64,000 nucleotides of DNA, from contig NW_027467782.1 of the NCBI RefSeq assembly GCF_004210375.1, positions 27,507,276 through 27,571,275 on the forward strand, in the 5' to 3' direction. Shown one piece after another: positions 14,641 through 60,453 of this stretch. Below the pieces are notes generated by a model. That model saw only the letters and a list, made by a program, of their open reading frames with translations, did not search any database and was not told the DNA's origin. A program made the position numbers and the translations under genes. Source of the stretch: Tachypleus tridentatus. Its lineage: Eukaryota > Arthropoda > Merostomata > Xiphosura > Limulidae. Each line of letters starts with the position of its first letter. Position 1 is the stretch's first letter.

Positions 14641-14859
14641 TTTGTTTGTTTTTGGAATTTCGCACAAAGCTACTCGAGGGCTATCTGTGCTAGCCGTCTC
14701 TAATTTAGCAGTGTAAGACTAGAGGGAAGGCAACTTGTCATCACCACCCACCGCCAACTCTTGGGCTACTTTTTCACCAACGAAAAGTGGGATTGACCAT
14801 AACATTATAACGCCCCCACGGCTGGGAGAGCGAGCATGTTTGGCGCGACTCGGGCGCGA
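14641..14859 (-). mobile_element. SINE-A, head-truncated, with 17 bp target duplication
   Basis: The tail lies at the left and the body reads to TTTGGCGCGACTCGGGC. The duplication GATATTATGTCAGTTTG lies at 14624-14640 and 14860-14876. The loss of the tRNA head inside the duplication shows that this copy was truncated when it inserted. Confidence 0.92.
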
Positions 14860-27500: not shown

Positions 27501-28831
27501 GTAAGAGAAAAATCAGGAATTCCATAGCTCTAACCAATGAATACAAATGCTTTGCAAACGATAATTAATGACAGAATTAACTTTCTTTTTTCTTTGTATG
27601 AGCACCCGGCTTGGTTGTTTACAAAAACGTAAAACATAACATGAAATTTTTATTGTGAAATAATTAAGTTAAAAGTGATACTATTGTCAACATAATCTTT
27701 CGTATACATGGGAAATATAAATAATTTTGTAGTCAATACACATGTAAAAACGGGCAAATTTACATAATGTCTGAATAAAACAATATATGATTGTTTGTGA
27801 ATTTCGCACAAAGCTACTCAAGGGCTGTTTGTGCTAGCCGTCCCTAATTTAGCAGTGTAAGACTAGAGGGAAGGCAGCTGGTCATCACCACCCACCGCCA
27901 ACTCTTGGGCTATTCTTTTATCAACGAAAAGTGGGATTGGCCGTCACATTATAATGCCCCCACGGCTGAAAGTGTGAGCATGTTTGGCGCGACAGGGATG
28001 CGAACCCGCCACCCTCAGATTACGAGTCGCACGCCTTAACACACTTGGCCATGCCGAGCCCTAACAGCGTATGAATCAAGATTTACATGTATTTATACTA
28101 AAGTTATACACAAATATTTAGAAGTAAGTACTTTTCGAGATTTGCGACTGAAATATAAATCCCTTTCACGTATCAGCCCTCAAATATATTCTCCCATCAT
28201 GTTTTCGTTATACACGCTCCCAAGTCACAAAAGTAAAGTTTGAAGAGAATAGGCCTTTTCCATTTACTTTTGGCATAAGCAATTAGAAAATAACATTTTG
28301 TGCCCAGAAACAAGAAAAGGTAAAAATTTTCTTACACAGTGTAATCTTACGTATATACAGACAATTATTATTTTAATCAATACACATGGTGAGTGAAATA
28401 TCAAACGAAAAGGTTATGGCTGAAATAAATTTAAAATCAAGATGGACGATTTCGATTTAGGTGTTATTTCTGTTAAATTAGTGTCGTTTAATAAATGAAA
28501 ATACGGTCTTTAAAAAAACCTTTAATTTACCTCTAACATCATGTTTGTAATCACCTTCACGATTTTTGCATGTGTAAATTCCCGCGTCTTCAAATTGGAT
28601 GTCGGTTAGCACTAATTTGCCACCGTATTTTATTTGCGTTTTCTCACTATTAATAACTTGTTCATTGAGATTTGAGAACCAAATTACTGATTCTTCTCTC
28701 GCTCTTTTATAAGCTCGGTTTGAACAAATTAATGTGAGAGTAGAACCACGTTCAGTTTCGTAGACGAATCTAAAACCTGAAACAAGCAGGAAATTAGCGA
28801 AAATATAAAATAATTGAGTGTAATTAGCCAT
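18191..28831 (-). CDS. Ig-domain single-pass membrane receptor with a GCC2/GCC3 cysteine-rich module
   Basis: Read on the minus strand, six exons are visible: 28831-28531, 22953-22891, 22706-22545, 21124-21007, 20597-20163 and 18562-18191. Junction phases 1, 1, 1, 2 and 0 fit the exon borders. The order is a signal peptide (MANYTQLFYIFANFLLVSG), one Ig domain (LTLICSN, VIWFSN, FEDAGIYTCKN), a short Cys-containing linker (NCTRGYQRDVYRC), a PCPPGHYDNG...CLPCPGGTY...CIPCPGD module, a juxtamembrane stretch (EVVLKLTFPW), a helix (LTLISICLIAL plus CVLCCFC) and a tail of about 260 residues rich in K, E, S and T. It should act at the cell surface as a receptor or adhesion molecule. I do not recognise a named orthologue. 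The frame moves by one base within the fifth exon. The tail has no kinase or death domain. Confidence 0.8.
18635..20162 (-). other. Receptor intron
   Basis: AT-rich sequence. I see no repeat or exon in it. Confidence 0.5.
20163..20597 (-). CDS. Receptor exon (membrane helix end and cytoplasmic tail), with frame change
   Basis: Entered in the phase set by the previous exon, it reads VLCCFCNVNEKARGKWKALK, which completes a membrane helix followed by basic stop-transfer residues. That frame stops near 20468. The frame one base away is open from about 20552 to the exon end (LVTKKITPSELDILEAV to LKSDSLTT) and fits the last exon. A one-base gap or insertion near 20540-20570, where A and G runs lie, or an unseen isoform, would explain this. 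Confidence 0.7.
21007..21124 (-). CDS. Receptor exon (juxtamembrane and start of membrane helix)
   Basis: It reads PTEVVLKLTFPWASKPTVV, then YPWWMEELTLISICLIAL, between a CTTAAG acceptor and a GTAAGT donor. It links the cysteine-rich module to the membrane helix in phase. Confidence 0.78.
21125..22242 (-). other. Receptor intron
   Basis: AT-rich sequence with nothing recognisable up to the SINE-A remnant. Confidence 0.5.
22243..22345 (-). mobile_element. SINE-A tail fragment
   Basis: TTTGTTTGTTTTTCAATTTC and GCGCTAGCCGTTCCTAATTT mark the tail end of a worn SINE-A copy. The rest is lost. Confidence 0.7.
22545..22706 (-). CDS. Receptor exon (GCC2/GCC3 module)
   Basis: It reads PCPPGHYDNGFQTHCLPCPG, GTYMTSFAADACIPCPGD and KITDEEGADNKDLC. 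The spacing of cysteines and the CP-PG-Y pattern match the GCC2/GCC3 (ephrin-receptor-like) fold. The donor is GTAATG. Confidence 0.85.
22891..22953 (-). CDS. Receptor exon (linker with two cysteines)
   Basis: This 63-base exon reads YVPAENLNCTRGYQRDVYRC between CCCCAG and GTAAGT. Phase 1 on both sides joins the Ig exon to the cysteine-rich exon. NCT is a possible glycosylation site. Confidence 0.78.
22954..25843 (-). other. Receptor intron, 5' of the foldback element
   Basis: Long AT-rich intron. Phase agreement of the flanking exons argues against a missing exon. I see no named repeat in this part. Confidence 0.5.
25846..26198. mobile_element. Foldback element with ~150 bp arms
   Basis: Arms 25846-25994 and 26045-26198 are reverse complements with scattered mismatches, around a 50-base loop. 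Shared stretches include GAAAGTTAAGTTCTTGCTTT and CAGATTTTCAT. TA stands at both outer borders, so it may be a Tc1/mariner-type MITE. It contains no gene. It would fold into a long hairpin in the receptor pre-mRNA. Confidence 0.8.
26228..26358 (-). mobile_element. SINE-D (third tRNA-like family)
   Basis: CCACATCGGGCTATTTACTG, then CACCGAGGGCAATCGAACTC, then GCGTTGTAAATCCATTGACT define a family also seen near 27.17, 32.04 and 54.02 kb. It lies 30 bases beyond the foldback element. Confidence 0.75.
27168..27296 (-). mobile_element. SINE-D copy
   Basis: GTGTGTTTTCTTTCAGC, then CCACGTCAGGCTATC, then GGGATTCGAACCTCTTATTG, then GTAAATCCGTAGACTTACC match the family. The TTCGAACC motif resembles a complementary tRNA B box. 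Confidence 0.78.
27790..28060 (-). mobile_element. SINE-A, full length
   Basis: It runs from TTGTTTGTGAATTTCGCAC to CACTTGGCCATGCCGAGCC. It is close to consensus. The gap up to the receptor's Ig exon holds nothing else recognisable. Confidence 0.92.
28531..28831 (-). CDS. Receptor first coding exon (signal peptide and Ig domain)
   Basis: The ATG at 28831 opens a hydrophobic signal peptide (about residues 1-19). An Ig domain follows: B-strand Cys in LTLICSN, core Trp in VIWFSN, and the D-x-G-x-Y-x-C signature in FEDAGIYTCKN. The exon ends in phase 1 before GTAAAT. Further 5' untranslated exons are not visible. Confidence 0.85.
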
Positions 28832-29430
28832 TGAATTCTCTCTGCACTGTACGCTTTGTAAATCACTTTCTGTATTGTTTCTAAGTGAAATATCAGTGTT
28901 ACTATGCGCACAAAGTATTCTTGTTTGAATGACGTCATGAACTGAAGTAACATTGTTCGGTGGAAAAACGTTTTACTAACAATAATGATTGCAAAGTTTA
29001 TTGCTTTCTGTCGTGTGAAAGACCTTAAACTGAGAAATTATAATCATGTTTATGTTTTGCATAATTTAGATTTAATAAACAATAACAACACTTGCCTGAG
29101 ATTTCAACTTGAAATTTAGGTAAAAGCAAATAAAATGTATACGAAGTTTTGCTTTGCAATTTCTTCTGACAATACAAGTCTTAGTCGGTATTTATGATAT
29201 CAACCATAATAAGACTGCTAACAGATGTCTCATGATACATGTAAATTATAATTGAGTAGTTATAAATGTATAAACACTGTAACAATATTTAAATTGAAAA
29301 ATCAGTTAAAGAATATTCACATATATAACTTGTGTGACAAATACTGCATTCCACGGTGTTATATAGGGATTAATGACTACAATTAGCTGTATCAAATATT
29401 TTGTTCTTCAAAACTAATATGATTTCAATA

Positions 29431-29472
29431 GTTTGTTTTTCGAATGTCGCACAAAGCTATTCGAAGGCTATC
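29431..29472 (-). mobile_element. SINE-A left part, split by a DNA transposon
   Basis: TTTGTTTTTCGAATGTCGC through GAAGGCTATC is the first 42 bases of a SINE-A. The rest continues at 31663 (TATTTGTGCTAG) after a 2190 bp insertion. Confidence 0.9.
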
Positions 29473-29562
29473 GAGGTTTGCGTGTGACGTCACTCTTGAC
29501 CTAGTTACTGCTGACCGTGTTTATATTCCAACACAAGCGTGATTCATTGTCAAAAGTGTGTG

Positions 29563-30628
29563 ATGGTACACTCGTGTTGTGCATTTAACTGTTCAAATCG
29601 ACGTGGACAGGCGGAAAATGTGTCATTCTACAGATTTCCTATAGATCCCGACCGAAGAAGACGATGGATTGCAGCTGTCAATAGGAAAAACTGGACACCC
29701 ACAGAGCACACCAGACTTTGTAGTAAACATTTTGTGTCAGGTATCTATAATTCATCTATAGCCAGGCTGAATAAATTGAAACTTACACGCATGATATATG
29801 TACAGCAGAGCACACTGCAGCACCAGTCAAAGAAATGTTTTTGCACACTTTTCTTTTACTTTTAAATTACTGAATAGTAAATTTACTGAAGGAACAATAT
29901 TATTCATGATGAATAGGTTATATAGCCATTTGTACATTAAGACAAAATGTTAATATCTCTTAAAGGACCAATTTAAGTGATTCATCAGAAAACTACAACT
30001 GGCACAAAATTAAATAGTGTGCAAATAATTAATTTGTTCGCTGTACATTCAGTTGTTAAACAATGTTCAGCATATTCAGTTATATATATATATATATTTA
30101 GTTAAAAGTGTACAGTGTATGTGTTATATATATAAATATTATCTGATCATGCTTGTAGGTCTATATCTTAACAAAATTATTGTACTCTGTTTCAGGGACG
30201 ACGAGTGATGATCCCCTATCACCTGACTATGTACCTTCCATATTTCATTTTACACGTTCTCCCTGAAGAGAAGGAAAGCTGCTGAATTGTGTAAATATGA
30301 AAACAGGAAAGAAGTGACCAAAAGGAGAAAAGAACAACAAAAGAGACATGAAGCTACTGCTGGGCTGCTTGAACTTGCTTTCATAGAATCTGCTGGCACT
30401 GCTGCCACTGATAGCAGCTGTACTGATTCTGCTGATGAACTTGAAGCTACATGTGATAATTTTGACTTGTGTACATCACAATATACAACTGAGACATGTA
30501 TGCAGACGGAAATATCATTCATAGACTTAGTTAGACTTGAATCTGAATGGCAACGTGGGAGCAGACTTCACCTAGTCCAGCCTTGCAGGTGCAGTGGGAA
30601 GATATTATCTCTCCATTCCTGCAACTAG
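29563..30628 (+). pseudogene. THAP-domain gene fragment of the transposon
   Basis: Exon 29563-29740 and exon 30196 to about 30550 are joined by an intron with GT/AG borders and matching phase. The THAP zinc finger (C2CH) is whole: CCAFNC, FYRFP, RRRRWIAAVNRKNW and LCSKHFVSG. The second exon continues SDDPLSPDYVPSIF, the usual box after THAP. One base appears to be missing near 30263, where the frame moves from ...FTRSP to LKRRKAAELCKYENRKE. Then come a basic coiled-coil-like stretch and CMQTEISFIDLVRLESE. Beyond that the sequence is antisense to the SWIM exon, so the DDE part is lost. The start at 29563 is chosen because THAP domains begin M-x-x-C-C. Confidence 0.8.
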
Positions 30629-31529
30629 CAACCCATAGCTTTAGTGGTGGTTCATTTAGCCGCTGAGAGTGGCACACCTGTAAAATAACAAAGAAAATAT
30701 TAAGTTGTGTATATATAAGCTTTTAAAGACAACTGGGTATCAGGTTGGGATACATGTGTCACTCAAATAATAAAATAATATAAAAAAATAACAGAACAGC
30801 TAAATATTAAATTATTTTTACAGAAACCTAACATGGCTATTGACCAGCTTTAACGGTCTATGTCTACTTGTACTATTTATTATCTATATATTGATTCCTT
30901 ACCAAAAATTAATCATAAATCAAAAATTAAGTTTTGAAACAGCCTAGACAATAAGGTATCTTAATATCATTATACAAACATGTATAGAAGTGCTCCTAGG
31001 CTAGAGCTTTGACAACAGTCAGTACACATGTAGTACAATAATATTGAACCATTTATTAAAATGGGGGCTCTACTTTACTTAAGTATCTAGTCTTCGTCTA
31101 AAATGTAGTTAAATCTATCATACAGAGTACATGATACATGTATGTAATACAACATGATGTACAAACTTTTGCTGTAATGATGACTTTATCCGACGTTGCC
31201 CTGGTTATCTGCACATTCTGTACAAATCCTACCACAAAGTACTTGTACGCATCAAGGCTTTTGTAACCTTTTAGACTTTCATTTGTATAGGTGGAAGTCC
31301 TGTTTATCAAATATATATAAATGTCACCATATGTAATATATGGCAGATCTACTCCGGAAACAGTCTGACTCTGAACAACGTTGTCTTGGCTGGATATTAC
31401 TGGCGTAAATACACGTGGCGGGAGCATATACGGGTCTCCTACACCCAGTTCCTTCACGTTTTCCTCATACCTGGCCTTATCAGCACCTGTCAGGTGTGCT
31501 ACAAGTGATGAAAAGCCAGCAGCAGCCAT
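30531..31529 (-). pseudogene. SWIM zinc-finger gene fragment (YqaJ-associated type)
   Basis: Exon 31529-31167 starts MAAAGFSSLVAHLTGADKAR and contains YGDIYIYLI and YKSLDAYKYFVVGFV. These match the N-terminal region of the SWIM-type, YqaJ-exonuclease-bearing proteins common in invertebrate genomes. It ends ITAK before GTTTGT. Exon 30677-30531 follows TTTTACAG in phase and reads VCHSQRLNEPPLKLWV, then HCTCKAGLGEVCSHVA, a complete CxC...CxH SWIM motif. Right after CSHVA the reading enters the antisense of the THAP gene and stops. The YqaJ nuclease domain is absent. Confidence 0.75.
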
Positions 31530-31662
31530 TTACATGTGAATAGTACTGAATACAGCAGTTGTTAACTCGTTCAGTCATGCGGGATACTTGCCACCCAATA
31601 TGGCGATATGTTTACAAACCTCGTTGTGGTCACGTGACACTAATAGGTTCACGCAAAACCTC

Positions 31663-31895
31663 TATTTGTGCTAGTCGTCCCTAATTTAGCAGTGTAAGAC
31701 TAGAGGGAAGGCAGCTAGTCATCACCACCCACCGCCAACTCTTGGGCTACTCTTTTACCAACGAATAGTGCGATTGACCATCACATTATAACGCCCCACG
31801 GCTGGGAGGCGAGTATGTTTATTGCGACCGGGATTCGAACCCGCGACCCTCGGATTACGAGTCGAACACCTTATCACACTTGGCCATACCAGGCC
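31663..31895 (-). mobile_element. SINE-A right part (continuation after the transposon)
   Basis: It continues from TATTTGTGCTAGTCGTCCCT through the body to CTTGGCCATACCAGGCC. With 29431-29472 it makes one complete SINE-A. Confidence 0.92.
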
Positions 31896-32036
31896 AAGAT
31901 TTCAATAGATCTTCCGTCCTGAAAACAGTAATATGTTCATTACGCTGTTCATGGTTGCCAGGTAAAATACTGTCACAGTTTTGTTGTGCTGTTGCAATAA
32001 AGATAATTCCCTGAATCAAATAAGCCTAAGATTTAT

Positions 32037-32134
32037 TATGTGTGTGTTTTTCTTATAGCAAAGCCACATCGGGCTATCTGCTCAGCCCACCGAGGGGAAT
32101 CGAACCCCATACCGCTGTACTAGCGGGAGGCAAG
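32037..32134 (-). mobile_element. SINE-D copy
   Basis: AAAGCCACATCGGGCTATCT, then CCCACCGAGGGGAATCGAAC. A middle part is missing before CCGCTGTACTAGCGGG. Confidence 0.75.
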
Positions 32135-32180
32135 ATTTATAATAAATATTATAGAAATTGCAAATGCTACTTTCCCCTCA

Positions 32181-32398
32181 GGCCCAGCATGGCCAGGTGG
32201 TTAAGGCACTCGATTCATAATCCGAAAGTCGCGAGTTCAAATCCCCGTTATAATGTGACGGTCAATCCCACTATTCGTTGGTGAAAGAGTAACCCAAGAG
32301 TTGGCGATAGGTGGTGATGAATAGCTGCCTTCACTTTAGTTTTACATTGCTAAATTAGGGACGGCTCGTCTTGTTTTACGCGAGATTAAAAACAAACC
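32181..32398 (+). mobile_element. SINE-A with internal deletion
   Basis: The head GGCCCAGCATGGCCAGGTGG runs to AAATCCCC, then jumps straight to GTTATAATGTGACGGTCAAT, so about 35 bases of the usual body are missing. The tail is AAAAACAAAC. Confidence 0.88.
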
Positions 32399-32944
32399 TA
32401 TCTATTAATTTGACGTTAAGATACATTTGCTTCTAGATTTTTAAGTTGTTCATTTCTCAGTTAAACAACTGAAAACTGAGAAGAATAGCATGCAAAACTA
32501 ACGTATAAATCAATCACACGATGGTACATGAATGAAATCCTTTGTTAAATGTAATTTTTGTTACTGTGACACTTCGGTTTTTGAAACGTAGATTTATGTT
32601 TTTATAAATCTTCAGTTTCATAAATATCTTGTTACGTATTTCTCTTCGTCTTTGAAGTGTGTTCTTGGATATTAAAGGAGGTCCGCAGTGAAGCTTAACA
32701 GTATGGGGTTCACTGTAATGGGGCTTTATTTATATACGAATAAGCCTTTGGGCCCTTTTTTATTATGGCTGACATTTTAATACATATATTTCTGAAAAGA
32801 TGTCTACGAATTTGTGTCATTCGCTTATTCTAGGTCTTTCTACAAGCCTATACAATGCGCATGCACATTATATACTGCACAGTATAAATCTGAGCATCAG
32901 TTGCTGTCAGCGGCAGTTCAGTTTTTTCATGTTAAGGACGGGTG

Positions 32945-34322
32945 TATACCTTTTACAGAGATCATTTTATTATGCGTGAGAAAAAAATGTGTGATGATAC
33001 TGAGCCAAAGAAACCTAACTCGCACGAGACGAAGGAATAAATGAATCATCTGTAAGACTGTTAAATAAAAGAACCAGTAAAAACAGTACTGAATGGCTAC
33101 CAACTGTTTTGCCTCGAAAACAATCGTCAAGAAAAGGAGCTCTCTAATGGTGAATATGGAATGTCTGCTATCAATATGGATAGATGATTGTAATCAGAAG
33201 CGAATTCCTTTAAGTCAAATGGAAATTCAAACGAAAGCTTCGAGTTTTTTAAACGCCTTTAAAGATTGGTTTGTTTTGGAATTTCGCACAAAGCTACTCG
33301 AGGGCTATCTGTGCTAGCCGTCCCTAATTTATCAGTGTAAGACTAGAGGGAAAACAACTAGTCATCACCACCCACCGCCAACTCTTGGGCTACTCTTTTA
33401 CCAACGAATAGTGGGATTGGCCGTCACATTATAACGACCCCACGGCTGGGAGGGCGAGCATGTTTGGCGCGACCGGGATGCGAACCCGCGACCCTCAGAT
33501 TACGAGTCGCACGCCTTAACACGCTTGGCCATGCCGGGCCGCCTTTAAAGAAACCGTTGGTGAATGGGGAACTAAAGAAATATTTTTGGCAAGCCGTGAT
33601 TGGTTCTTTCGTTTTAAAAAACACTCTGGTTTTCATAATGTTCGTATTGCAGGCGAAAGTTCAAATTAATAAAAAGTTCGTTACGAAGATAACCAAATAT
33701 TAATGTTGATAAAAGGGGTTTATTTTGGGAAAAAAAGTGCCTTCAAGAACTTTTCTATCAGAAAATGAAAAAAACTCGGCCACGTTAGAAGGGGTAAAAG
33801 ATCGTTTGACACTTGTTTTGCGGAAATGGATCTGGCGATTTTAAATTAAAACCTGTGCTTGTGTATCGTGCGGAAACACCCCGAACACTTATCAGTTGTG
33901 CAAAGAAGACTCTTCCAGTTGTTTGGCGATCAAATAAAAAAAGCATGGGTCCCAAAACCTTTGTTTGAAGACTGGTTAAAAAAGCTATTTTTGTCCTGCA
34001 GTTGAACATTACTGCAAAAGAAAACAACTTGGACTTTAAAGTCATCCAACAGGACTTTGTGACTTTAATGGAAATGTCAAAATTCATCTTTTCCACCCAA
34101 TACAACATCTCTACTGCAATTAATGAATCACGGTGTCATTGTAACGTTTGAAGCTTATTATTTGAAGCGAACTTTCTCTCAAGCAATAAAGACTACAATT
34201 ACAGAAGCTGCACTATCTTCGACTAAATTCTGGAAAAATTACATCATCAGAAGTGCTATCGAGAATATCAACGAAGCGAGAGTAACATGAGAGCAATATG
34301 GAAGCACGTTCTGCCTGATTGT
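32945..34322 (+). mobile_element. Tigger-type (pogo) transposase relic
   Basis: Mixed frames give the Tigger order: KKPNSHE near the start, WGTKEIFLASRDWFFRFKK (the CENP-B-like helix region), VYRAETPRTL, RSNKK, FEDWLKK, FPPNTTSLLQ, NHGVIVTFEAYYLKRTFSQA, FWKNY and MRAIWKHVLPDCTS. The DDE catalytic region is recognisable but interrupted by several frame changes and stops. A SINE-A at 33265-33540 splits it. It is an old, dead copy. Confidence 0.82.
33265..33540 (-). mobile_element. SINE-A inserted in the Tigger relic
   Basis: It is full length (276 bp). The target duplication GCCTTTAAAG lies at 33255-33264 and 33541-33550. The host Tigger frame resumes right after the duplication, so the SINE is younger. 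Confidence 0.95.
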
Positions 34323-34324
34323 AC

Positions 34325-35940
34325 AAGCTTTAAAAATTTTCCACTGGCTGGTTGAGGCTGAAAAATATGTATAGAGCAAATACATTGTAGAGAAAAGTTA
34401 ATTGCCACTTGACAGCAGTAGAAAGAACTTCGGTCTACCAGATTTAATGAATGGGCTGCACAAGGCACATATATGGCAAACTTATTTTCTTCTAAAATCT
34501 TTTGCTGCATATCCTTACAACGCCCAGACATGTTAGCAGCATTGTGATAAGACTGACCCCTATATTTTGTAAAATTAAGTTTGCAAAGTTCACGTAAGTA
34601 CTGCAATACCTGGTTTGCCATTTCATCAGTCATTTGACTTTTTGGTTCCAAAAAGGTTAAAAAGCATTCAATAGGCTGCTCATTTTTTAAGTATCGAGTT
34701 CAACTCTTATCTGATCTATATGTGATAGATCTGGCGTCGAGTCAACTGACAAGCTAAAATAACAAGAAGAATTTACTTCATCAACAACAAATGTGTAGAC
34801 CTTCTGAACCATTGGTTCAATGAGTTCTTCATTGGCGGTTTTGGACAAGTATGAAGGATTTCCTTTTCCAAAATTTCCATATTTATAAATATGCCCTGCT
34901 AAACTGGATCAAACTGACTTATGAGCTAATGTAGCCCTAAAAAATTCCCATTCTGCAGTGAACCAAATTTCATCTGTTCTGTGAAAAGCCAGGCTACGTT
35001 CAGCTAACGTACAAATAACAACTATTGCATGCTCCAAGACATGTTCCCAGTAATCGCACTCTTCTTTTAATTTCTTTTTCCAACTCTTGTTGCAAGCCTA
35101 AACCTTGTCTGTAAGTTAAGTATGTTAACATAGAGTTTCGGTGAGTAGTGCTTCTTTAATGATGATCAATTACAATAGTATTTCGCCAGTCACTGAACCC
35201 TTCTCTTTCAACAAAACACGAGGCAAATTTAGGGACAAAGAGTCGACAGTGAATACAACAACCATTCTCTCTTGTATTACTCACCATTGGCTTTTACCCC
35301 AAAGAAAAGTTTTTGCAAACAGTATTTCATTAGTTTGCTACTATTGAAAGTCCAGCAAGATTTAACAAATGACCCATTGTGGTGTTAACAGTCAGTGGGT
35401 CCACAAGCAATCGAATAAGCCACATCAGCAGCAGAGAAATCGAGCCACAACCCTGGATCTTTTGCTTTAGTTTCTTCATCTTTTTTAGACTGAAGCATTT
35501 TACCATAGTTCAGCAATTTTCATTTTCAGAAATTATTTCAACTTCAAACTGTCTTGTGGAGAAACTTGCATCAACATTAACACTAGATTTATCTGGAGAA
35601 TTTACAAGCAAAGTAAGATCAGTTGTGAAAGTTGTTGCAGTTGAGCAAGCCTGTGACACCTCAACGTCATCATAATGTTCTGACCTTCAAGTGGACAAAG
35701 TGGTACTTGTAGATGTGGAGCTTGGTTCAACTTTAATCATGTCAGAGTCAGATACAGTACAAGTGACTTCTCATGGCAGAGATGGGTTTTGATTTGGAAG
35801 ATCTTGTTGTGTAAGTTCAGTGAACAAATTAGTCTGCTATCTAGACTTGGCCACTAAATCCAAAGCCTTTTGTTGGTTCTTTTCTGCCAGTTTTTTCTTT
35901 TGTGCACCACTTAAATGAACTTGTTTCATCTTGCAGTCTG
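34325..35940 (-). mobile_element. hAT transposase relic (ZMYM1/DUF4371-like)
   Basis: On the minus strand the reading starts near 35935 with MKQVHLSGAQKKKLAEKN. It then gives LFVPKFASCFVEREGFSDWR (the TTF/BED-like segment), and near 34560 FTKYRGQSYHNAANMSGRCK, QQKILEENKFAIYVPCAAHS and LNLVDRSSFYCCQVAINF. Close to the end comes YFSASTSQWKIFKA in another frame. Several stops and frame changes make it dead. It abuts the end of the Tigger relic on the opposite strand with almost no gap. Confidence 0.82.
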
Positions 35941-36700
35941 AAATATACAGAGAAAAAAACACAAAATAATACGGATCATATATAGTTATAATGATAAGAA
36001 AAACACTGACATTTATGAAAAAAAACATTCGTAAGACAGTCAAACATACTAAACTCTAGGTCTACATTTAGACAAAGACTGTCAGAAAGTTATCCTCGGG
36101 TCCAGATCCATCAGCACATAAACATGAATTCATAAATACTTTTATTGACTTACTGTATTCTGATAACCATTGAAAACCATTCATGACTGGCCTCAATCCA
36201 TTTTAGAAAAATTAATTTTCAGTCATTGCAAAAGTTTCATTAAGGTTGTTGTTATGGTAGCTGATTGCAAGAAGCAATGACAATGGTAATATGTAAATCC
36301 ATTGTGAGCCAAAAGTATTCCAAAACAATTTGTGATCCACAACACATTCTGTAGTAGCCTATATACACAGTAATCATTCTGTAATAATACACATATATAA
36401 CATATAATCAGTTGTAAACTGTATTGCACATTGAATTATTAAATACTGGGTTAGGCCTGGGCTAGAGTACCTTAATCCTAATATCTGAAGAATGAGTTGT
36501 AACCTCAACTTTTCTTTTGACCTCAGATTTGACCTGGGACTTTAGATGAGCCAACAAACCATACATCAACGAAATAGGCATATGTCTGAAACTTTACTTA
36601 CATGCCTGGATGCGAAGGCAAATTCAAAACGACAGCCTTACACTGGGAATAGTCCACTTCATTATTCCAGGCTACAGTAGCGTTTCCAGTGTACTTACAC
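35941..36700. other. Unassigned sequence
   Basis: It probably includes the 5' flank of the hAT copy. No gene is seen. Confidence 0.4.
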
Positions 36701-36715
36701 TAAACTTGTTACAGT

Positions 36716-37034
36716 ATTTAGGCTTAACGTTATTGTCACTCAGTTCTCAGATGACATTAACGTCAGGCCTAATGCTAATACAGGGTGGCCCGTAAGTCCC
36801 TACCCATCCATATGTTATTATGTTATATTCAGTTACGCATGTATTATATATTCGTTTCTTTTTTTCACAGAAATATGGCCGATGTAACCCATTTATACTT
36901 GAAAATATCTCACAGAACATGGCGTCGCATATTATGCAGCGAGATACACTGGATACATAAGATATATGGATGGGTAGGGACTTATGGGCCACCCTGTACA
37001 TTGCAACTGAGGCCACTAACGTTAAGCCTAGTAC
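36716..37034. repeat. Older inverted repeat around the MITE
   Basis: TAGGCTTAACGTTA near 36720 and its complement TAACGTTAAGCCTA near 37018 extend to arms of about 30 bases with mismatches (both continue toward a CTCAGTT block). The 216 bp MITE sits between them. Confidence 0.55.
36781..36996. mobile_element. TA-flanked MITE with ~33 bp inverted ends (mariner-type)
   Basis: The left end is CAGGGTGGCCCGTAAGTCCC and the right end, read inward, is CAGGGTGGCCCATAAGTCCC. The identity continues through TACCCATCCATAT. TA stands on both sides (36779-36780, 36997-36998). The 216 bp carry no transposase. Confidence 0.9.
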
Positions 37035-40080: not shown

Positions 40081-40349
40081 TTTTTGTTTTCGTTTTGAAT
40101 TTCGCACAAAGCTATTCGAGGGCTATCTGTGCTAGCCGTCCCTAATTTAGCAGTGTAAGACTAGAGGGAAGGCAGCTAGTCATCACCACCTACCACCAAC
40201 TCTTGGACTACTCTTTTACCATCACATTGACCGTCACATTATAACGCCTCTACGGCTGAAACGGTGAACATGTTTGGCGCGACGGGGACGCGAACCCGCG
40301 ACCCTCAGATTACGAGTCGCACGCCTTAACACGCTTGGTCATGCCGGGC
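40081..40349 (-). mobile_element. SINE-A with target duplication
   Basis: Near full length. GTTCCTCCTCAA at 40069-40080 and GTTCCTCGTCAA at 40350-40361 form the duplication with one mismatch. Confidence 0.92.
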
Positions 40350-60039: not shown

Positions 60040-60453
60040 CTACTTCTGAAAGATTGTCCATATCAACAAACATATTACCACTGTGGATATTTTCTTGTGT
60101 GATATGTTCTTTGTTACGATACCTTTAAAAGTATACAAATGTCTAGATTTTTTCTTAGAAGCACCTTGCATCATGGAATCGTGCTTAGATGTTAGCTTCA
60201 AAACTGGTACTTGTGCTATGAGTATCAACAGCATTTTTCTACCAAGTGATTCTCTTGTGCTGCTACTAATCTTATTCGTCTTCTCTTTTTTCAGTTGCTT
60301 GTTTCTTGTGTATCTGTTGCCCTGAAACTTCCTGGTTTCTGATTTGTGAGGACCATGCTTCATGTCCAAATTAAAATATTCAGGAATTACAAGGGTAATA
60401 AACATTTTTGTTAGACTACATGAATAAGTAAAAGTATTTTCTTTGTTTAACAC
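60040..60453 (-). pseudogene. Possible transposase N-terminal relic with a KFxGNRYT motif
   Basis: A 137-codon open frame contains SETRKFQGNRYTRNKQLKKE and SSSTRESLGRKM. The KFxGNRYT box near the N-terminus is known to me from arthropod Mutator-like transposase proteins. Nothing downstream supports a complete gene. The C-terminal part of the frame is probably not coding. Confidence 0.25.

What the first reader, a model, noticed from the sequence alone, without database searches (positions are those of the whole stretch)
29473..31662. Two-gene DNA transposon with THAP and SWIM/YqaJ-type genes facing each other
Inverted ends (GAGGTTTGCGTG and GAGGTTTTGCGTG) enclose the first exons of a THAP gene on the plus strand and the first two exons of a SWIM-zinc-finger gene on the minus strand. 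The SWIM proteins known to me often carry a YqaJ-type exonuclease. A transposase partnered with a SWIM/YqaJ nuclease in one mobile unit would be an unusual transposition system. The small target duplication (TAT plus one base) excludes Kolobok and the 8 bp families. I cannot say whether this pairing is already named.
Basis: partly seen in the sequence, partly recalled or inferred. Interest (0 to 1): 0.8.

Follow-up and report, generated by a model that had tools for sequence, protein, structure and literature searches.

The report
Shortened copy of an ISL2EU transposon
This is a jumping gene of the horseshoe crab that has lost its middle; fuller copies elsewhere in the genome carry a transposase gene and a DNA-trimming enzyme gene facing each other, a pairing already published under the name ISL2EU.

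Summary
In detail: 29473-31662 has matching inverted ends, THAP exons on + and two exons of a second gene on -. It is an internally deleted DNA transposon. The window copy lost about 2.8 kb. The duplication is AT, not 'TAT plus one base': 19 of 25 distinct insertions show AT/AT. THAP-DDE transposase, YqaJ protein and AT duplication is the published ISL2EU group (PMC4482050). So the pairing is real but named. Less familiar: relatives of the second protein end in an ING-type PHD finger (pattern in 103 of 120 listed homologues), not mentioned in the papers searched, and sites favour T|AT|A over the reported A|AT|T. The window copy spread with its surroundings: 13 of 13 closely related loci read share its flanks.

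The parts
29470..29471 (.). left target-site duplication AT
   Evidence: SINE empty sites
29472..29484 (+). left terminal inverted repeat CGAGGTTTGCGTG (first base A in 22 of 25 distinct insertions taken by their first member; one T fewer than AGAGGTTTTGCGTG)
29563..29740 (+). THAP-domain exon 1 of the transposase gene (donor GT at 29741)
   Evidence: (PF05485, 5.7e-16)
30196..30554 (+). truncated exon 2 of the transposase gene; frame broken in this copy, cut off before the HTH and DDE region
30553..30554 (.). junction of the 2.8 kb internal deletion (about positions 1102 and 3899 of the 5007-bp copy L025)
30553..30677 (-). start of ORF2 exon 2 with the SWIM-type zinc-finger motif; the rest (YqaJ, PHD) is deleted
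31167..31529 (-). ORF2 exon 1, begins MAAAGFSS
31650..31663 (-). right terminal inverted repeat AGAGGTTTTGCGTG (read on -)
31664..31665 (.). right target-site duplication AT
29431..31895 (.). SINE copy (29431-29471 plus 31666-31895) into which the element inserted; related SINEs in the window give empty sites

Best explanation
The window holds a non-autonomous, internally deleted copy of a two-gene ISL2EU (PHIS superfamily, Harbinger-like) cut-and-paste transposon of Tachypleus tridentatus. Shown by sequence: full-length copies of about 5.0 kb have 14-bp inverted ends AGAGGTTTTGCGTG and AT target duplications, and hold a THAP-HTH-DDE_Tnp_4 transposase gene on one strand and, tail to tail on the other, a SWIM-YqaJ-PHD gene. 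Inferred from the families: the THAP domain binds the ends, the DDE domain cuts and joins, and the ORF2 protein, a lambda-exonuclease-like nuclease tied to DNA or chromatin by its zinc fingers, resects DNA at the donor or target break and so steers repair. Deleted copies like this one would arise when the gap left by excision is repaired incompletely; some derivatives appear to have moved later in trans. This copy inserted once into a SINE and was then multiplied together with its surroundings.
For: Both genes between the same ends in 10 of 10 full-length copies. DDE_Tnp_4 3.9e-51, HTH_Tnp_4 1.3e-17, YqaJ 1.4e-17; THAP 5.7e-16. YqaJ beside transposase at 14 of 15 long loci, the 15th an internal deletion. 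AT/AT in 19 of 25 distinct insertion sites (20 of 25 if L017 stands for the L016/L017 site, whose L016 end is altered). SINE relatives in the window align over the joined flanks without a gap at the junction in 13 of 13 printed rows, with AT there in 10 of 13. Published definition: PMC4482050; PMC9179366 agrees (passages). The pair recurs elsewhere: Patiria miniata LOC119734942 (YqaJ) and LOC119734943 (DDE) come from contigs of equal length. L021/L023, L022/L028 and L024/L027 share a deletion junction but not flanks. 13 of 13 other related loci read share the window copy's flanks.
Against: Two traits reported for ISL2EU differ: the AT is mostly flanked by T...A (21 of 25 and 19 of 25) instead of A...T, and the TIR starts AG, not the usual GG. 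No tree with named ISL2EU, Harbinger or Spy transposases was made. 6 of 25 insertions lack a clean AT/AT. The role of the ORF2 protein is inference; no activity is shown, and Han et al. call it unknown. No fetched copy was shown to have both genes whole; even L025, with no stop in the two conserved parts, has a frame break between its SWIM and YqaJ parts. Shared deletion junctions could also be recurrent deletions.
Confidence: 0.95

Rival explanations
1. A new superfamily with a 4-bp duplication ('TAT plus one base') and a transposase-nuclease pairing not seen before.
For: In the window alone TATC/TATT flank GAGG...CCTC, and several insertions read TATA on both sides.
Against: Over 25 distinct insertions the inner A (22) and T (25) are nearly invariant while the outer bases vary (T21/A4 and A19/T5/G1), which fits a TIR base plus an AT duplication. 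The transposase is DDE_Tnp_4 and the gene pair is published (PMC4482050).
Confidence: 0.03
2. Two separate elements, one with a THAP gene and one with a SWIM/YqaJ gene, side by side by chance.
For: Copies with only one gene exist (L026, L029, L035, L043, L049).
Against: 10 of 10 full-length copies carry both between one pair of ends; the one-gene copies are internal deletions with the same ends; the pair recurs in other animals.
Confidence: 0.01
3. A Kolobok-type element such as KolobokE, which also joins a transposase with a lambda-exonuclease-like nuclease.
For: [quoted passage not shown]
Against: AT, not TTAA, duplication (TTAA for Kolobok is recalled); the transposase belongs to DDE_Tnp_4/HTH_Tnp_4; the nuclease is a separate convergent gene, whereas in KolobokE it lies downstream of the transposase domain.
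Confidence: 0.01

Closest known systems
ISL2EU transposons (PHIS superfamily; Han et al. 2015, PMC4482050)
   Same: THAP + HTH + DDE transposase, second ORF with YqaJ domain, AT duplication, about 5 kb, animal host
   Different: T|AT|A rather than A|AT|T site flanks; TIR starts AG; ORF2 ends in a PHD finger (the words PHD, SWIM and plant homeodomain do not occur in that paper's text); the window copy is a 2.2 kb deletion derivative
PIF/Harbinger
   Same: related DDE transposase, two ORFs
   Different: TWA duplication and a Myb/SANT second ORF instead of YqaJ (PMC4482050)
KolobokE / KolobokP / KolobokD (PMC9587614)
   Same: DNA transposons that carry an accessory nuclease (passages)
   Different: different transposase superfamily; nucleases of other arrangement or type
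RAG1/RAG2-type transposons (recalled)
   Same: transposase gene with a second convergent gene whose product can carry a PHD finger
   Different: unrelated transposase; RAG2 is not a nuclease; likeness of arrangement only, no test made

Membership tests
ISL2EU | DDE transposase with HTH and THAP domains | tested here: met
   PF05485, PF13613, PF13359; catalytic D, D, E with 74 and 46 residues between
ISL2EU | second ORF with YqaJ exonuclease domain | tested here: met
   (PF09588, 1.4e-17); 10 of 10 full-length copies
ISL2EU | AT target-site duplication (groups are defined by TSD composition in PMC4482050) | tested here: met
   19 of 25 distinct insertions AT/AT; SINE empty sites
ISL2EU | reported trait, not group-defining: A before and T after the duplication (A|AT|T) | tested here: not met
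   T before in 21 of 25, A after in 19 of 25
ISL2EU | usual trait, not group-defining: TIR begins GG | tested here: not met
   AGAGG
ISL2EU | autonomous length near 4.8 kb (an average in PMC4482050) | tested here: met
   4905-5012 bp in 10 full-length copies
ISL2EU | DDE domain falls in the ISL2EU clade | not tested
   no named reference transposases were gathered
PIF/Harbinger | TWA duplication | tested here: not met
PIF/Harbinger | Myb/SANT second ORF | tested here: not met
   the second ORF of L025 gave YqaJ, Viral_alk_exo and a weak PHD hit, no Myb
Kolobok | TTAA duplication (recalled) | tested here: not met

The most novel reading that the evidence does not exclude
The accessory protein of ISL2EU transposons is a three-part SWIM / lambda-exonuclease / ING-type PHD protein, that is, a chromatin-reading exonuclease. 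Its PHD finger brings the nuclease, and the transposition or repair step it serves, to H3K4-methylated open chromatin, so ISL2EU would be a two-gene cut-and-paste system whose second gene couples a histone reader to DNA-end processing. In Tachypleus the cage tryptophan is replaced by H in the copies read, so this lineage may have lost or changed the reading.
Probability: 0.3. Interest if true: 0.6.

Novelty: new member of a known kind. Interest (0 to 1): 0.3.

Why it matters
It settles a first-pass claim of an unnamed system: the pairing is ISL2EU. The useful residue is a horseshoe-crab family with full-length copies, deletion derivatives and a clean SINE empty site, and the SWIM-exonuclease-PHD build of the accessory protein, whose function Han et al. 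call unknown. That gives a direct, testable idea (chromatin-targeted end resection). It also warns annotators: a clam genome paper counts 'YqaJ-like viral recombinase' and 'herpesvirus alkaline exonuclease' domains as endogenous viral elements (PMC7826175, passage), and the ORF2 proteins here hit the Pfam YqaJ and viral alkaline exonuclease models in 40 of 40 homologues scanned, so some such counts may really be ISL2EU genes (inference).

Tried and rejected
Rejected: a 4-bp duplication, two adjacent elements, Kolobok (see rivals). A duplication TA directly next to GAGG/CCTC was also rejected, because it would restore a SINE 2 bp longer than its relatives, and none of the 13 printed rows needs a gap there.

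Selection: copies were found by the left end or the transposase, so YqaJ-only derivatives are under-counted except through. Genome searches score only the best candidates, so copy numbers are lower bounds. 38 copies entered (37 fetched plus the window); left out were L039, L041 and L045 (one end missing or structure unclear), L001-L008 (only part of the element held; L003 is the window copy) and L049 (fetched later). The 15 long YqaJ loci are those covering about 280 residues or more; C12:12727716 (91 residues) and the shorter or less similar rows of its 71 matches were not counted. The 40 homologues of A2 were picked by hand, mostly long ones, from the 120 listed of 829.

Full report
What is there. 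Between them lie a THAP exon on + (29563-29740; Pfam THAP 5.7e-16), a remnant of transposase exon 2 (30196-30554, frame broken here), and on - two exons of a second gene (31529-31167 and 30677-~30553) that splice in frame into a protein with a SWIM-like Cys-x-Cys...Cys-x-His motif. No YqaJ and no DDE core is present in the window copy.

Source. The window lies at G000:C19:27507276-27571275 of a 2.17 Gb assembly. Proteins named Tachypleus tridentatus come from contigs whose lengths equal C8, C9, C1 and C3 of that assembly, so I take the genome to be that of the tri-spine horseshoe crab.

Copies. The first 328 bases gave 40 matches, the 40 scored of 102 candidates, the window included. I fetched 20 loci, 20 more and one more. 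Against L025 (5007 bp), ten copies are continuous from end to end: L020, L025, L030, L031, L032, L033, L034, L036, L040, L044 (4905-5012 bp), pairwise 0.2-3.9% different. All ten carry sequence of both the transposase and the YqaJ protein on opposite strands, tail to tail, most with stops or frame breaks. L016 and L017 carry both genes with a 0.25 kb deletion. The other 26 of the 38 copies with both ends, the window's included, have lost larger inner parts (L023 also holds an insertion). The window copy lost about 2.8 kb between positions 1102 and 3899 of L025: the DDE core, the YqaJ domain and the PHD finger.

Is it really two-gene? A whole-genome search with the YqaJ protein gave 71 matches. 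Of 15 long loci of this family, 14 lie 1.5-2 kb from a transposase match; the fifteenth (L049) keeps both element ends and has lost the transposase core and the far end of the YqaJ gene. Transposase-only copies (L026, L029, L035, L043) are likewise deletions between the same ends.

Target duplication. 38 copies fall into 25 distinct flank groups, each judged by its first member; 19 of 25 show AT on both sides. One of the six misses (L016) is an altered end whose twin L017 shows AT/AT. The base inside the left AT is A in 22 of 25 (C in the window, T in two) and the base inside the right AT is T in 25 of 25, so the TIR is AGAGGTTTTGCGTG and the duplication AT. The window insertion sits in a SINE. 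In 13 of 13 printed alignments of SINE relatives over the joined flanks there is no gap at the junction; AT stands there in 10 of 13 (GT, TG and TT in the others). Site flanks: T before AT in 21 of 25 (A in 4), A after in 19 of 25 (T in 5, G in 1).

Known or new. Han et al. 2015 (PMC4482050; [quoted passage not shown] average autonomous length about 4840 bp; animals only. A fish paper says much the same (PMC9179366, passages). The defining features tested (domains, gene pair, AT) are met; the clade test was not made; two reported habits (A|AT|T flanks, GG start) are not met. I therefore file it as ISL2EU with an unusual site preference. The function of the second ORF is said to be unknown.

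How it likely works. Shown: structure, ends, duplication, gene pair, deletion derivatives. Strongly suggested: movement of derivatives in trans (same junction, different flanks: L021/L023, L022/L028, L024/L027), unless the same deletion recurred. Inferred: THAP binding of the ends, DDE cutting and joining, YqaJ resection of broken ends. Most speculative: chromatin reading by the PHD finger.

The window copy's own history. L001, L002 and L004-L014 (13 loci besides the window) share its flanks over the 1.5 kb held to the left (L001, L002, L004-L008) or about 4.8 kb to the right (L009-L014) at 95-100% identity. A probe 29 kb away (60050-60450) also has at least 40 copies counting itself, 22 of the 40 on contig C19. 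So this copy was multiplied as part of larger segments, by segmental duplication or as a passenger of a larger mobile unit (not told apart), rather than by its own transposition.

Noticed in passing
window 27953-36969 and 60050-60450: The window lies in a large, many-copy repeated segment: 13 other loci share parts of 27.95-36.97 kb at 95-100% identity, and a probe at 60 kb has at least 40 copies counting itself, 22 on contig C19, which is only 69.8 of 2167 Mb.
   Followed up: partly
window 28478-28972 (-): An immunoglobulin-domain exon (Pfam Ig_3 1.3e-7) about 0.5 kb from the element, inside the repeated segment, so it may belong to an expanded Ig gene family.
   Followed up: no
window, e.g. 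33269-33540, 61591-61324, 40093-40349, 14644-14854: An abundant SINE (13 alignable copies in the 64 kb); it looks tRNA-derived from memory, but ARAGORN found no tRNA gene.
   Followed up: partly
G000, e.g. C5:9606625-9607638, C1:154400581-154401477: 18 of the 99 transposase matches in the genome are only 43-58% identical: other ISL2EU-like lineages seem to live in the same genome.
   Followed up: no
P0003 residues ~359-406 and homologues P0004-P0123: ORF2 relatives end in an ING-type PHD finger; no mention in the papers and passages seen or found.
   Followed up: partly
PMC7826175: A clam genome paper books YqaJ and herpesvirus alkaline exonuclease domains as endogenous viral elements; some of these may be ISL2EU second genes.
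   Followed up: no
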